DNA from: an uncultured Eubacterium sp.
Lineage (GTDB): Bacteria > Bacillota_A > Clostridia > Lachnospirales > Lachnospiraceae
Length of the DNA stretch: 8,690 nucleotides
NCBI GenBank assembly: GCA_947653505.1
Contig: CANTHI010000130.1
Span: forward strand, 1-8,690
Direction of reading: 5' to 3'
Under the pieces are notes generated by a model. The model was not told where the DNA came from. It worked only from the letters and a program-made list of their open reading frames with translations, and searched no databases. Shown here piece after piece: positions 446 through 8,690 of the stretch (positions are counted from its first letter, which is position 1; each line of letters opens with the position of its first letter). The position numbers were made by a program, and so were the translations under genes.

Positions 446-760
446 TTATTTTCTGCAGAATGTCCCACAGGCTGTCTGTTCACATCTGCATGCATTGGAA
501 CCGCCGACGTCAATTCCGTCTGCACGGCAGCTGCAGTCATCGTTGTGTACACATTTTTTTGCTTCACAACGGATATTGACTTTTAAAGAAGGTTCCTTTG
601 TGCTGTTTGTCATCGTATCTGCGCGTCTTTCCTCAAAGCTGTCACAGCATGTTTCGCTCGCGCTGCCTGCGCCGGCCCCTCCTACACTGATATTATCCCT
701 GATGCATCCGTGATCCTGATTGTACCGGCAGTTTACTACGCTGCAGTCTAATCTTGGCAT
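446..760 (-). CDS. DUF1540 domain protein with two cysteine-rich repeats
   Basis: A 104-residue protein with two copies of the DUF1540 motif, found in many Clostridia and presumed to bind metal; its biological role is unknown. Domain 1 spans about residues 5-42 with Cys 6, 11, 19, 38 and 39 around an INxSVGG-like core (DNISVGG). Domain 2 spans about 62-102 with Cys 65, 70, 76, 78, 91, 93, 98 and 102 and a matching DGIDVGG core. The linker at about 43-60 is polar. The start is ATG at 758-760, preceded by TAAGGAGGAATATC, an excellent ribosome site. A longer in-frame start at 838 would add 26 residues with no domain and would swallow the ribosome site. The gene lies 246 nt downstream of thrS on the same strand. 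That gap contains tandem and inverted repeats, so the gene probably has its own control. The family call is firm; function is unknown. Confidence 0.85.
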   Translation of the reverse strand: MPRLDCSVVNCRYNQDHGCIRDNISVGGAGAGSASETCCDSFEERRADTMTNSTKEPSLKVNIRCEAKKCVHNDDCSCRADGIDVGGSNACRCEQTACGTFCRK

Positions 761-780
761 GATATTCCTCCTTATACCTG

Positions 781-801
781 GGAATGCAGTTATTGCATTC
801 C
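781..801 (-). promoter_or_regulatory. Perfect inverted repeat in the DUF1540 leader
   Basis: GGAATGCA (781-788) and TGCATTCC (794-801) form an 8-bp stem with a 5-nt loop, ending about 13 bases before the AAGGAGG site of the DUF1540 gene. It could be an mRNA hairpin close to the ribosome site or a protein operator. Just upstream lies a smaller repeat, CGTAT (812-816) with ATACG (821-825). There is no U-run, so a terminator is unlikely. Confidence 0.4.
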
Positions 802-871
802 GTATTTTATGCGTATTACCATACGTATTCTGATGCATGCATATTTCCAGGATTTTTTATGATACTTGTAT

Positions 872-1006: not shown

Positions 1007-2974
1007 TTATTTTGCTTTTTCTTCTTCCGGCAGTTCTTTGCGAATCTCTTTTGTACGGATTTCCCTGCAGATATTGTCGATAAATTCCTGCAGCGGCTGT
1101 ACGCCTTCGTTGCCTGCAAAACGGCTGCGTACGGATACGGTGCCGTCCTGCTCTTCCTGCTTTCCTACGACCAGCATATAAGGCAGCTTGTCGAGTCTTG
1201 CTGCACGGATCTTAAATCCGATTTTTTCGGAACGGCTGTCAACGGTTGCATCCACTCCGTTTTTCTTAAGCTGTGCACATACTTTTTCTGCGTATGCGTT
1301 AAATTTGTCAGAGATTGGCAGGACACGGACCTGTTCCGGGCAAAGCCATGTCGGAAATTTGCCGGCATACTTTTCAATCAGCCATGCCAGCGTACGCTCG
1401 TAGCAGCCCATAGACGTCCTGTGAATGATGTACGGGCGTATCTTCTCTCCGTTTTCGTCAATATAATACATATCAAAGTTTTCCGCGATGGCACAGTCCA
1501 GCTGGATCGTAATCATCGTGTCTTCTTTGCCATATACATTTTTAGCCTGAATATCAATCTTTGGCCCGTAAAATGCTGCTTCACCGTCTGCTTCCACAAA
1601 CGGCAGTTCTTTTTCTACCAGAATCTTGCGGAGCGCATCCTGTGTGGATTCCCAGTACTGCGCATCGCCCAGATATTTTTCTTTATTCTGCGGGTCCCAC
1701 TTGGACAGACGGTAAGTGACATCTTCCTGCAGCCCGAGCGTGGAAAGTGTATAATAAGCAAGCTCCAGACAGCCTTTGAGTTCCTCCTCTGTCTGGTCCG
1801 GCCGGATCACAAGGTGGCCTTCCGAAATGGTAAACTGGCGCACACGTGTCAGTCCATGCATCTCACCGGAGTCCTCCGAACGGAACAGCGTGGAAGTCTC
1901 TCCCATACGGTATGGCAGATCGCGGTAGGACTTCTGTGTATTTTTGTATACATAATACTGGAACGGGCAGGTCATCGGACGAAGCGCAAACACCTCGCGG
2001 TCCTTCTCCTCATCTCCCAGAATAAACATGCCTTCTTTATAATGGCCCCAGTGACCGGAAATCTTATACAGATCGCTCTTTGCCATCAGCGGCGTTCTCG
2101 TACGCACATAGCCCCATTCATTGTCTTCCAGATCCTCGATCCAGCGCTGGAGCTTCATGATCATCTTTGTGCCCTTTGGCGTAAACAGCGGCAGGCCCTG
2201 TCCGATTACATCCACGGTTGTAAACAGCTCCATCTCACGGCCAAGTTTGTTGTGATCCCGCTTTTTGATATCCTCCAGATGCTCCAGATAAGCGGCCAGT
2301 TCCTCTTTTTTATTAAATGCCGTCGCATAAATGCGCTGCAGCTGTGCCTTGTGCTCGTCCCCTCTCCAGTAAGCCATTGAGGAAGATATGAGCTTGTAAG
2401 CTTTGATCCCTTTGGTTGACATTAAATGCGGTCCTGCACAAAGATCCACAAAACCGCCCTGATCGTAAAAGGAAATCTCAGCATCCGGCTCCAGATCCTC
2501 AATCAGTTCTACTTTGTACGGTTCTTCCCGCTCACGCATATACTGTATGGCTTCTTCCCGGGACAGTGTGAAGCGGGTAATCTCATGTCCTTCCTTTATG
2601 ATTTTTTTCATTTCTGCTTCAATGCGGTCCAGATCTTCTCTGGAAAACGGGGCATTGTCAAAATCATAATAAAATCCATCTTCGATCGCCGGCCCGATCG
2701 CAACCCTGGCATCCGGAAACAGCTGTTTCACCGCCTGCGCCATCACGTGCGAGGCAGTATGGCGGATCACGGTTAAGCCTTCTTTTTCATTTGCTGTCAC
2801 AATACGCAGTTCACAGTCTTCTGTGACAGGGGTTCTTAAGTCCACGATTTTCCCATTTAACTCACCCGCACATGCCACACGTGCAAGCCCGTCACTAATG
2901 TCTTTTGCGATCTCATATACAGTCTTTGATTCACCGTATTCCTTCACTGTTCCGTCTTTTAATTTAATCTGCAT
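1007..2974 (-). CDS. thrS: Threonyl-tRNA synthetase
   Basis: Charges tRNA-Thr with threonine in the cytoplasm. The 655 residues are close to the usual 640 or so. Domains in order: TGS (about 1-61); the second N-terminal editing domain (about 65-225) with its H72-x3-H76 and C179-x3-H183 site for removing mis-attached serine; the class II catalytic core (about 240-535) with the motif 2 segment FRSEDSGEMHG at 364-374; and the anticodon-binding domain (about 545-640). The three zinc ligands that select threonine appear to be present as C336, H387 and H518. The core reads MTCPFQ where E. coli-type enzymes have MNCPGH, and SMGCYERT near motif 3, which marks a variant clade I associate with Clostridia. 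The start ATG (2972-2974) follows an AGGAGAAG site. The gene lies 33 nt after the small membrane protein gene, so the two are probably cotranscribed. No T-box leader is visible nearby. No clear intrinsic terminator follows the stop. Confidence 0.97.
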   Translation of the reverse strand: MQIKLKDGTVKEYGESKTVYEIAKDISDGLARVACAGELNGKIVDLRTPVTEDCELRIVTANEKEGLTVIRHTASHVMAQAVKQLFPDARVAIGPAIEDGFYYDFDNAPFSREDLDRIEAEMKKIIKEGHEITRFTLSREEAIQYMREREEPYKVELIEDLEPDAEISFYDQGGFVDLCAGPHLMSTKGIKAYKLISSSMAYWRGDEHKAQLQRIYATAFNKKEELAAYLEHLEDIKKRDHNKLGREMELFTTVDVIGQGLPLFTPKGTKMIMKLQRWIEDLEDNEWGYVRTRTPLMAKSDLYKISGHWGHYKEGMFILGDEEKDREVFALRPMTCPFQYYVYKNTQKSYRDLPYRMGETSTLFRSEDSGEMHGLTRVRQFTISEGHLVIRPDQTEEELKGCLELAYYTLSTLGLQEDVTYRLSKWDPQNKEKYLGDAQYWESTQDALRKILVEKELPFVEADGEAAFYGPKIDIQAKNVYGKEDTMITIQLDCAIAENFDMYYIDENGEKIRPYIIHRTSMGCYERTLAWLIEKYAGKFPTWLCPEQVRVLPISDKFNAYAEKVCAQLKKNGVDATVDSRSEKIGFKIRAARLDKLPYMLVVGKQEEQDGTVSVRSRFAGNEGVQPLQEFIDNICREIRTKEIRKELPEEEKAK

Positions 2975-5531: not shown

Positions 5532-5900
5532 TCAGTGGCACGGCACAATTTCCAGCCAGTATCCATCCGGATCCTGTATAAAATAAATACCCATCTGCGG
5601 ATTTTCAAAACAGATGCATCCCATCTCTTCATGCAGCCTGTGTGCAGCTTCGTAATCATCGGTCTGAAACGCAAGATGGAACTCACAGTCCCCGAGATTA
5701 TACGGCCTGTCCATATCCCTCATCCACGTCAGCTCCAGCTCAAAACCCGACTGCCCGTCCGCCACATAGACGATAATAAAAGAACCGTCCTGCGCTTCCT
5801 TTCTGCGTACTTCCTTAAGTCCCAAAGCCTTTTCATAAAACTCCAGTGACCTGTCCAGATCCAGTACATTGTAATTTTCATGAATCATTTTAAATTTCAT
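5532..5900 (-). CDS. gloA: Glyoxalase I-like VOC enzyme (lactoylglutathione lyase family)
   Basis: A 122-residue protein of the vicinal oxygen chelate fold, most like glyoxalase I, which converts the hemithioacetal of methylglyoxal and a thiol to a 2-hydroxyacyl thioester. Two beta-alpha-beta-beta-beta modules are apparent: NVLDLDRSLEFYEKALG near the start and FHLAFQTDDYEAAHRLHEEM in the second half. The four expected metal ligands align with E. coli GloA as H7, E56 (in ELELTW), H75 and E117 (in DPDGYWLEIVP). Clostridia usually lack glutathione, so the true thiol partner, or even the reaction, may differ; other VOC activities are possible. The start is ATG at 5898-5900 because GGAGG lies 8 nt upstream. 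An in-frame ATG at 5913-5915 overlaps that site and is rejected. The gene stands alone, with the T-rich repeat array directly upstream and no clear terminator after it. Confidence 0.8.
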   Translation of the reverse strand: MKFKMIHENYNVLDLDRSLEFYEKALGLKEVRRKEAQDGSFIIVYVADGQSGFELELTWMRDMDRPYNLGDCEFHLAFQTDDYEAAHRLHEEMGCICFENPQMGIYFIQDPDGYWLEIVPCH

Positions 5901-5914
5901 AGCTGTTTCCTCCA

Positions 5915-6420
5915 TTTTTTATTTTTTTATTATTTAATTTTTTTATTTTCGAATTTTTCTTATTTTTTATTTTTCTTATTTTCGAAATTTTTTATTTTGT
6001 ATTTTTTTATTTTCTAACTTTTCTTATTTCCTTATTTTCTTATTTTCCAATTTTTCTCATTTTCAATTTTTGTTATTTTCCAATTTTTCTCATTTTCAAT
6101 TTTTCTTATTTTCCAATTTTACTTATTTTCCTAATTTTCTTATTTTTCTTAATTTTCTTATTTTTCCTAATTTTCTTATTTTTCCTAATTTTCTTATTTT
6201 CGAATTTTTCTTATTTTCCAATTTCTCTTATTTTCCAATTTTTCTTATTTTCCAATTCCTCTTATTTTCCAATTTTTCTTATTTTCCAGTTTTCTTATTT
6301 TCCAATTTTTCTTATTTTCCAATTCCTCTTATTTTCCAATTTTTCTTATTTTCCAGTTTTCTTATTTTCCAATTTTTCTTATTTTCCAATTTCTCTTATC
6401 TAATTTTTTTCTTATTAATT
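5915..6420. repeat. Degenerate 17-bp minisatellite array
   Basis: About 500 bases of almost pure T, A and C on the plus strand, built from a 17-bp unit CTTATTTTCCAATTTTT with variants of 16-18 bp. From about 6039 to 6394 the units can be laid end to end without gaps (more than 20 copies); towards 5915 the array decays into T runs with TTATTTT and CGAA pieces. Local families show homogenisation: 6039-6071 and 6072-6104 are a 33-bp pair (one mismatch), and 6139-6192 holds three 18-bp units with TTTTTC(C/T)TAATTTT. The only G residues are in rare CGAA, GTTATT or CCAG variants. There are no unique spacers, so this is not CRISPR, and no coding role is evident. On the minus strand the array would form an A-rich leader for the glyoxalase mRNA. 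Confidence 0.92.
6227..6360. repeat. Perfect 67-bp higher-order duplication inside the array
   Basis: Four successive units, three of 17 bp and one of 16 bp (unit ends TTTTT, TCCT, TTTTT and CCAGTTTT), form a 67-bp block at 6227-6293 that is repeated base for base at 6294-6360. A third copy begins at 6361 and diverges in its second unit. An exact duplication amid diverged units points to a recent slippage or unequal exchange event, so length variation between strains is likely. Confidence 0.88.
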
Positions 6421-7471: not shown

Positions 7472-8690
7472 ATGTCAGCAGCATTCGAAATTATTGATGT
7501 GTATGCCAGAGAAATTATGGATTCACGTGGAAATCCTACGGTAGAAGCAGAAGTCACCATAGAAAACCAGGAAAACGGAGAGATCCTGTGCAGCCGCGCA
7601 GACGTTCCTTCCGGTGCCAGTACCGGACAGTTTGAAGCTGTAGAACTGCGCGATAACGACAAAGCCTTTCATGGAAAAGGTGTCCGCAAGGCTGTCGCTA
7701 ATGTAAATGGAAAAATTGCCAGACAGCTGATCGGGAAAAATGCACTGATGCAGAACCGGATTGATGAAATGATGCTGGAGCTGGATGGTACCAAAAACAA
7801 GTCCTCGCTTGGTGCAAACGCCATACTTGGTGTATCTATGGCCTGTGCCAGAGCCTGCGCAGATGCGTTAAAACTCCCTTTGTACCGTTATCTGGGAGGC
7901 TGCGGCAGGGGAACGATCCCTGTACCCATGATGAACATTTTAAATGGCGGTGCACACAGCCGCAACTGTATTGATTTTCAGGAATTTATGATTCTGCCGG
8001 TCGGCGCCTGCGGGATCCGTCAGGGTCTTCAGTGGTGCGCAGAAGTCTATCAGGAGCTGAAAAAGCTGCTGGATCAGGACGGGCACAGCACCGGCGTTGG
8101 AGATGAAGGCGGTTTTGCACCGGATTTAAATAATACGCCGCAAGTGCTGGATTATCTGATGAAAGCAGTCCAGAAAGCCGGTTTTGAACCAGGACGGGAT
8201 ATTTCCTTTGCAATGGATGCAGCCGCGAGCGAGCTGTTTCAGGAAGACGCTGCGATGTATTATTTTCCGGGAGAGACAAAATCCCTGCTGCGTCAGAACG
8301 CCAGGATCATCGAACAGAACCAGACACAGGAATCCGAGTGTACCTGCGAAGGCACAACCGTCGTCACGGAACAGGTAAAAGACGGCTGCATGTGTGAAAC
8401 AGACTGCAACTGTCTGACACCTGATACCGATGGCCAGATGATTATGCGTTCCTCGGATGAAATGATCGAATATTACGAAAAACTGGTAGATAAATATCCG
8501 ATTGTATCCATTGAGGATCCTCTGGACGAAGAAGACTGGGACGGCTGGAAAAAAATCACGGAACGGCTTGGGAAACGGATTATGCTCGTCGGAGACGATC
8601 TGTTTGTAACCAATGCCACAAGGCTGCAGCGCGGCATCCACAACGGATGCGCCAATGCCATTTTAATCAAGCCAAACCAGATCGGAAGCC
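7472..8690 (+). CDS. eno: Enolase with a cysteine-rich insertion (partial, runs off the right edge)
   Basis: Phosphopyruvate hydratase of glycolysis, interconverting 2-phosphoglycerate and phosphoenolpyruvate with magnesium. 406 codons are visible with no stop. The start ATG follows AAAAGGAGG at 5-nt spacing. The active site is intact: S50 in the mobile GAST loop, H162 (GGAHS), E171, E212 (GDEGGFAP), metal ligands D249, E348 and D375 or D376 (VGDDLF), and K400 (ILIKPNQIG). The odd part is about residues 269-322, between FPGE and RSSDEM. From the first to the second metal ligand is 99 residues, against 45 in B. subtilis enolase, so about 54 are extra. The insert begins Gln-rich and contains C290, C292, C306, C308, C312 and C314 (C-x-C-x13-C-x-C-x3-C-x-C), which suggests a metal site. 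Other departures, such as [14 protein letters not shown] for the usual GGAHADNNVDIQEF, mark a divergent enolase, perhaps a second paralogue. No other glycolytic gene is in view. Confidence 0.93.

What the first reader, a model, noticed from the sequence alone, without database searches (positions are those of the whole stretch)
8276..8437. Enolase with an extra segment carrying a CxC...CxCx3CxC cluster
About 54 residues are inserted between the first (D249) and second (E348) metal ligands of an otherwise intact enolase, at the point where ordinary enolases have a short beta turn (SGEG...KTSxE). The insert holds six cysteines in three C-x-C pairs, a pattern typical of zinc or iron-sulfur sites and not expected by chance. 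It may make the enzyme redox- or metal-responsive, mediate an interaction, or mark a moonlighting paralogue. All catalytic residues visible are retained, so activity is likely kept.
Basis: partly seen in the sequence, partly recalled or inferred. Interest (0 to 1): 0.75.

Follow-up and report, generated by a model that had tools for sequence, protein, structure and literature searches.

The report
Enolase with metallothionein-like cysteine insert
A sugar-breakdown enzyme of uncultured bacteria related to gut Lachnospiraceae carries an extra, strongly conserved segment with three Cys-x-Cys pairs near its active site; differently built segments of this kind sit at the same spot in other branches, which hints at a metal- or oxygen-responsive attachment.

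Summary
The window's enolase (7472-8689 +, cut by the window end) has a 53-residue in-frame insert (residues 269-321, nt 8276-8434) with six Cys in three CxC pairs between metal ligands D249 and E348. It is no artefact: proteins P0001-P0042 all have this 91-residue loop segment, and in 31 distinct segments five Cys are invariant, the sixth present in 29. The insert's dN is close to that of the core, synonymous sites at or near saturation. No second enolase was found in four genomes with CxC enolases. In a family sample 85 of 115 usable rows have a plain 43-residue segment; four have two or more CxC. New: CxC-rich inserts occur in four places on the core tree, two of them known from a single sequence each. 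CxC is in excess in 17 long inserts (15 seen, 2.7 expected, 0 of 5000 shuffles), and still so without the window type (9 against 1.4). Best reading: a metallothionein-like thiolate site, probably zinc, at the end of mobile loop L3, tuning activity or assembly. Metal binding and regulation are inferred, not shown.

The parts
7472..8689 (+). eno, phosphopyruvate hydratase (3' end cut by window edge; most full-length close relatives 474-484 aa)
   Evidence: ORF; Enolase_N 184.9 bits and Enolase_C 250.5 bits, both above cut-off; 91% identical to P0001
8276..8434 (+). 53-residue insert (residues 269-321) right after the GE of the ...YYFPGE loop
8339..8347 (+). first CxC pair (C290-T-C292)
   Evidence: both Cys in 31 of 31 distinct clade segments
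8387..8395 (+). second CxC pair (C306-M-C308)
   Evidence: C306 31 of 31, C308 29 of 31
8405..8413 (+). third CxC pair (C312-N-C314), followed by LTPDT
   Evidence: both Cys 31 of 31
8216..8218 (+). D249, first Mg ligand (role recalled)
   Evidence: invariant in alignment A1
8513..8515 (+). E348, second Mg ligand (role recalled)
   Evidence: invariant in alignment A1

Best explanation
A housekeeping, apparently sole enolase carries a selected six-cysteine module grafted onto the C-terminal end of mobile loop L3, near the active site. In the reducing cytoplasm the three CxC pairs bind metal as a small thiolate cluster (most likely zinc, possibly Cu(I)), which folds the otherwise loosely structured insert. 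Metal loss or oxidation (oxygen, disulfide stress, copper) unfolds or cross-links it and changes L3 mobility, subunit assembly or activity, so enolase flux follows metal or redox state. Shown: the insert, its place in the sequence, purifying selection on the insert and its Cys, CxC excess, CxC inserts in separate branches, catalytic residues kept, no second eno found in four related genomes. Inferred: position in L3, metal binding, metal identity, the coupling to activity.
For: Cys columns nearly invariant (mean entropy 0.06 against 0.60 for the other columns of segment positions 20-68) while the residue inside each pair varies; one variant lost a Cys and gained one five residues on, keeping six. 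dN of the insert 0.10-0.12 against 0.08-0.11 for the rest, synonymous sites at or near saturation, three pairwise comparisons. CxC-rich inserts in four places on the core tree (5 changes, all forced by starred branches, 5-5 in bootstraps; 6 changes on the larger FastTree; one-clade AU p 8e-60). CxC 15 against 2.7 expected in 17 long family inserts; 9 against 1.4 without the two window-type rows (0 of 5000 each); 4 against 0.7 without L129 as well (11 of 5000). AlphaFold: core confident, residues 289-296 and 305-321 below pLDDT 50, compatible with, but not specific to, a metal-dependent fold. Precedent for a CxC-containing zinc redox switch: Hsp33 (PMC7423844 passages).
Against: No metal, redox or activity data. 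Low pLDDT fits plain disorder equally. Two of the four CxC branches (P0069, L129) rest on one sequence each. The other inserts vary in length and several are Gly/Ala-rich. P0043, inside the window clade, keeps only 3 insert Cys, and P0059 keeps 3 in its clade, so full Cys sets can be lost. 13 of the 17 long inserts have fewer than two CxC. The absence of CxxC, which would set this apart from zinc ribbons, is not significant (none in 247 of 5000 shuffles or fewer-or-equal). In M. [quoted passage not shown]
Confidence: 0.4

Rival explanations
1. Metal-free thiol-disulfide switch: the CxC pairs form disulfides on oxygen exposure and reversibly stop or protect enolase.
For: Relatives are mostly named as anaerobe groups (titles; lifestyle recalled); conserved CxC pairs; plant enolase ENO2 is described as a target of redox modifications (PMC11971034 passages).
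Against: The shifted variant (CISQTDCCC) breaks one CxC pair but keeps six Cys; 4 of 31 segments have 7 Cys and the P0069 insert has 5, which fits counting of ligands better than fixed pairs.
Confidence: 0.2
2. Docking handle: the insert is a metal- or disulfide-stabilised surface loop that binds a partner (an RNase, another metabolic enzyme, the cell envelope) without regulating catalysis.
For: Enolase appears in PDB complexes with RNase E, RibD and Csm/AcrIIIA2 (titles); mycoplasma enolases carry a lineage-specific addition in the S6/H7 region (PMC8822174; identity of position not tested).
Against: CxC inserts with otherwise unlike sequences suggest shared chemistry rather than a shared partner interface.
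Confidence: 0.2
3. Metal store or detoxification: an abundant glycolytic protein is used as a carrier of a metallothionein-like peptide, with no effect on enolase itself.
For: CxC clusters resemble metallothioneins (recalled); L129 has a 169-residue segment with 10 Cys.
Against: A place near the active site is not needed for a store; no test of metal tolerance.
Confidence: 0.12
4. Tolerated, near-neutral expansion of a permissive loop with chance cysteines.
For: The loop tolerates inserts of many lengths, many without CxC.
Against: Constraint on insert and Cys; CxC excess 0 of 5000 shuffles, also without the window type.
Confidence: 0.08

Closest known systems
Ordinary bacterial enolase (PF03952 + PF00113; e.g. 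B. subtilis 4a3r, Anaerostipes caccae 3uj2)
   Same: Both enolase domains, catalytic and Mg residues, overall fold
   Different: In the three alignments printed (B. subtilis, A. caccae, E. hirae) the match stops at residue 265-268 of P0001 and resumes at 321-328. The 60 chains listed of 67 matched are 417-477 aa, against 484 for P0001; the other alignments were not seen
Metallothioneins (plant type 1 domains with CxC-x3-CxC runs; recalled)
   Same: CxC pairs, CxC-x3-CxC spacing
   Different: Embedded in an enzyme loop; only six Cys; no Pfam metallothionein match in the window enolase or P0001
Hsp33 redox-switch domain (CxC + CxxC, Zn; PMC7423844 passages)
   Same: CxC in a Cys cluster of a bacterial protein; the proposed metal-release logic
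   Different: Hsp33 has one CxC and one CxxC; here three CxC and no CxxC, inside a glycolytic enzyme; not filed as a homologue
Mycoplasma enolase helix-7 / H7-H8 insert (PMC8822174 section 18)
   Same: Lineage-specific addition in the S6/H7 region of enolase
   Different: Short helix motif F-K/G-K-L/F-K-x-A-I, absent here; no CxC cluster in the passages seen; identity of position not tested

Membership tests
Enolase (phosphopyruvate hydratase) | Enolase_N and Enolase_C domains above Pfam cut-off | tested here: met
Enolase (phosphopyruvate hydratase) | Mg ligands D249, E348, D375 and catalytic H162, E171, E212, K400 present (roles recalled) | tested here: met
   for the window; all but E212 invariant and E212 nearly invariant (90% or more) in A1. 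C-terminal active-site residues lie beyond the window end
Enolase (phosphopyruvate hydratase) | Enolase activity | not testable with these tools
   needs assay
Metallothionein | Small, Cys-dominated protein recognised by a metallothionein model | tested here: not met
   no such Pfam match for the window enolase or P0001; it is a large enzyme
Metallothionein | Thiolate metal cluster | not testable with these tools
   needs ICP-MS or spectroscopy
Hsp33-type zinc redox switch | CxC plus CxxC four-Cys motif | tested here: not met
   three CxC, no CxxC in the window insert
Zinc ribbon / ferredoxin-type site | CxxC pairs (recalled) | tested here: not met
   no CxxC in the window insert, none in 17 family inserts; over all 17 the absence alone is near chance level (247 of 5000 shuffles also have none)
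Mycoplasma enolase helix-7 insert | F-K/G-K-L/F-K-x-A-I helix motif | tested here: not met
   motif; no match in the window enolase

The most novel reading that the evidence does not exclude
Several lineages of Lachnospiraceae-type bacteria have independently turned their apparently only enolase into a metal- or oxygen-gated enzyme by growing a metallothionein-like CxC cluster on active-site loop L3, a direct control of glycolysis by metal or redox state for which I know no bacterial precedent.
Probability: 0.25. Interest if true: 0.85.

Novelty: new variant of a known kind. Interest (0 to 1): 0.6.

Why it matters
Enolase is among the most conserved enzymes. A strongly constrained thiolate-type module near its active site, gained in more than one branch, would be an unusual direct link between metal or oxygen state and glycolysis in anaerobes. 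The separate branches give a ready experiment: unlike inserts, same loop, same CxC spacing, and natural insert-free relatives as controls.

Tried and rejected
Frameshift or assembly error: rejected, P0001-P0042 share the segment. Paralogue: no second enolase in 4 of 4 genomes searched with an insert-free query. Single origin of all CxC inserts: rejected on the core tree (AU p 8e-60; the group was defined by the trait and the test is model-bound). Transfer of one homologous insert between branches: made less likely because region searches with the two main inserts return disjoint sets (33 and 19 proteins), but these searches need shared 5-residue words, so it is not excluded, above all for the shared CxCxxPDT end. 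The segment as a module in other proteins: not found; all 33 and all 19 hits carry PF00113 (only proteins of 0.55-1.75 times the query length are searched). A DNA pattern scan for CxC-x3-CxC in two genomes gave 61 and 85 hits against 13 and 18 for the reversed control; in the 30 hit loci read, 0 of 44 pattern occurrences lay in the longest covering frame (the two enolase loci as positive controls scored correctly), so I draw nothing from it; a first version gave the same. CxxC absence as a pointer to metallothionein-like sites: checked again and found not significant, so the confidence was lowered slightly.

Rows dropped: of 130 family loci (L081-L210), 13 gave no ORF by my motif, L093 was under 400 aa and L131 lacked anchors, leaving 115. 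The 130 are among the best-listed matches of 317 genomes with a match (397 sampled); the query P0001 carries the insert, so the sample leans towards it. P0030, P0041, P0042, P0044, P0045, P0046 (fragments or mosaics) and L001-L080 were left out of the trees. The 179-row tree uses representatives of 230 rows; the 52-row tree was hand-picked and does not include P0043. The 42 rows of the conservation count were picked by segment length 91 and include the window. Codon analysis used three DNA sequences (window, L081, L082). One search lists the best 120 of 7972 proteins; others were not seen.

Literature: ten searches, seven of them with enolase as a term; by titles and abstract starts none is about a Cys-rich enolase insert (one search listed 15 of 42, 10 of 19, 6 of 7). 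The library lacks most subscription papers. Seen as passages: PMC11971034, PMC4373793, PMC10619443, PMC13370339, PMC7423844; as passages and section 18: PMC8822174; the rest as search listings.

Full report
What is there. The window holds, on the + strand from 7472 to its end, an enolase gene whose last part lies beyond the window. Both enolase Pfam domains score far above cut-off, and the Mg ligands and catalytic residues that the window covers are in place (roles recalled). Right after the GE of the ...YYFPGE loop lies an in-frame stretch of 53 residues (269-321, nt 8276-8434). The three printed PDB alignments to the close relative P0001 (B. subtilis, A. caccae, E. hirae) stop at residue 265-268 and resume at 321-328. 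The stretch contains C290, C292, C306, C308, C312, C314: three CxC pairs.

It is real. Among the 120 proteins listed of 7972 found, P0001-P0042 all have a 91-residue segment between the D249 motif and SIED (77-91% identical to the window). In 42 rows of that length (39 of these proteins, L081, L082 and the window; 31 distinct segments) five of the six Cys are invariant and the sixth is present in 29 of 31, while the residues inside the pairs vary. The two departing segments keep six Cys: C308 is replaced by Ser and the residue between C312 and C314 becomes Cys. One shorter relative, P0043 (segment 77, three Cys), falls in the same clade, so loss or partial forms occur. Between the window, L081 and L082 the insert has dN 0.10-0.12 against 0.08-0.11 for the rest of the gene, with synonymous sites at or near saturation: the insert is held nearly as tightly as the core.

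It does not look like a second copy. In the four genomes found with CxC enolases (G001, G380, G334, G209), an insert-free enolase used as query matches only that one gene, in two pieces flanking the insert. Completeness is not told, and the window's own genome is not held.

Where else it occurs. The family of G001 is not named by the tool; named relatives (names, titles) suggest Lachnospiraceae. Of 397 genomes sampled from it, 317 have a match; 130 loci were read and 115 gave a usable enolase: 85 have a 43-residue segment, 8 a shorter one, 17 have 55 or more, 4 have two or more CxC. Of loci L035-L080, mostly other taxa, 39 of 46 could be read: 33-48 residues, no CxC. The loop is thus an insertion hot spot in these bacteria; many inserts lack CxC, and 85 of 230 segments (the window type included) contain PDT near their end.

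Separate branches. On a tree of the enolase core with the variable loop left out, rows with at least two CxC fall in four places: the window clade (its sister rows P0085, L144, L195 lack it), the P0047-P0066/L083 clade, P0069, and L129. The fewest changes are six on the 179-row FastTree, five of them forced by starred branches, and five on the 52-row maximum-likelihood tree, 5-5 over the 5-95% range of bootstraps. Holding them as one clade is rejected (AU p 8e-60; the group was named by the trait). Some changes may be losses (P0059). P0069 and L129 are one sequence each, so the firmest count is two well-populated branches plus two single ones. Region searches with the window-type and the P0050-type insert return disjoint sets of proteins (33 and 19), all enolases; the search needs shared 5-residue words, so distant homology is not excluded, and both types share a CxCxxPDT end.

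More than composition. In the 17 long inserts of the family sample, picked by length and not by Cys, there are 15 CxC against 2.7 expected (0 of 5000 shuffles). Fourteen of the 15 come from L081, L082, L083 and L129, one from L087. As P0001 was the query, L081 and L082 were favoured; without them 9 are seen against 1.4 (0 of 5000), and without L129 too, 4 against 0.7 (11 of 5000). CxxC is absent, but this is not significant (247 of 5000 shuffles have none; 1174 of 5000 without the window type). Cys makes up 5.7% of the inserts against 1.4% of the cores. Single-insert shuffles give P of 0.0065 (window), 0.0043 (P0050), 0.0052 (P0069), 0.0001 (L129), these being picked for their CxC; P0043, P0059, P0103, P0115 and P0112 give 0.06-1.

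Structure. AlphaFold on P0001 with 56 sequences gives a confident enolase core (mean pLDDT 85.2), a helix at 266-281, a weak hairpin at 285-302, and pLDDT under 50 at 289-296 and 305-321. The 50 Foldseek matches listed are all enolases. In streptococcal enolase loop L3 (245-266) closes over the active site together with L1 and L2 (PMC4373793 passages). By motif the insert sits at the end of L3 (inference). In the M. [quoted passage not shown]

Mechanism. CxC clusters look more like metallothionein-type thiolate clusters (recalled) than like zinc ribbons or ferredoxin sites. The most likely working is a small Zn (or Cu) thiolate site that orders the insert and couples metal or redox state to L3, assembly or a partner. 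The step from conserved CxC to metal is inference, and the step to regulation more so. Rivals are a bare disulfide switch, a docking handle and a metal store; neutral expansion is disfavoured.

Novelty. Lineage-specific additions in enolase are known (helix 7 of mycoplasmas, PMC8822174), and redox modification of plant enolase is known (PMC11971034). A conserved CxC module in the enolase active-site loop was not met in seven searches with enolase as a term of a library that lacks most subscription journals. I rate it a new variant of a known kind.

Noticed in passing
window 5921-6399: A T-rich tandem array, period 17, 28.6 copies, 85% matches, lies just upstream of the minus-strand glyoxalase-family gene (5532-5915).
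   Followed up: no
window 446-838, - strand: A second Cys-rich protein, 130 aa with two DUF1540 stretches, in the same window as the CxC enolase.
   Followed up: partly
window 1007-2974, - strand: Threonyl-tRNA synthetase gene; no Rfam family, hence no T-box leader, reaches its gathering score anywhere in the window.
   Followed up: partly
L129 (G209:C52): The longest enolase loop segment seen: 169 residues with 10 Cys and five CxC, including CECGC and CCCH runs.
   Followed up: partly
L083, L085, L088, L129, P0064, P0115: Many enolase inserts (29 of 230 segments) share an (I/V)PxG(A/S/V)YEAG motif, with or without Cys; its role is unknown.
   Followed up: no
P0041, P0044, P0045: Enolases that look like mosaics of a window-type half and a foreign half, each on a single contig; assembly chimeras or recombination.
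   Followed up: no
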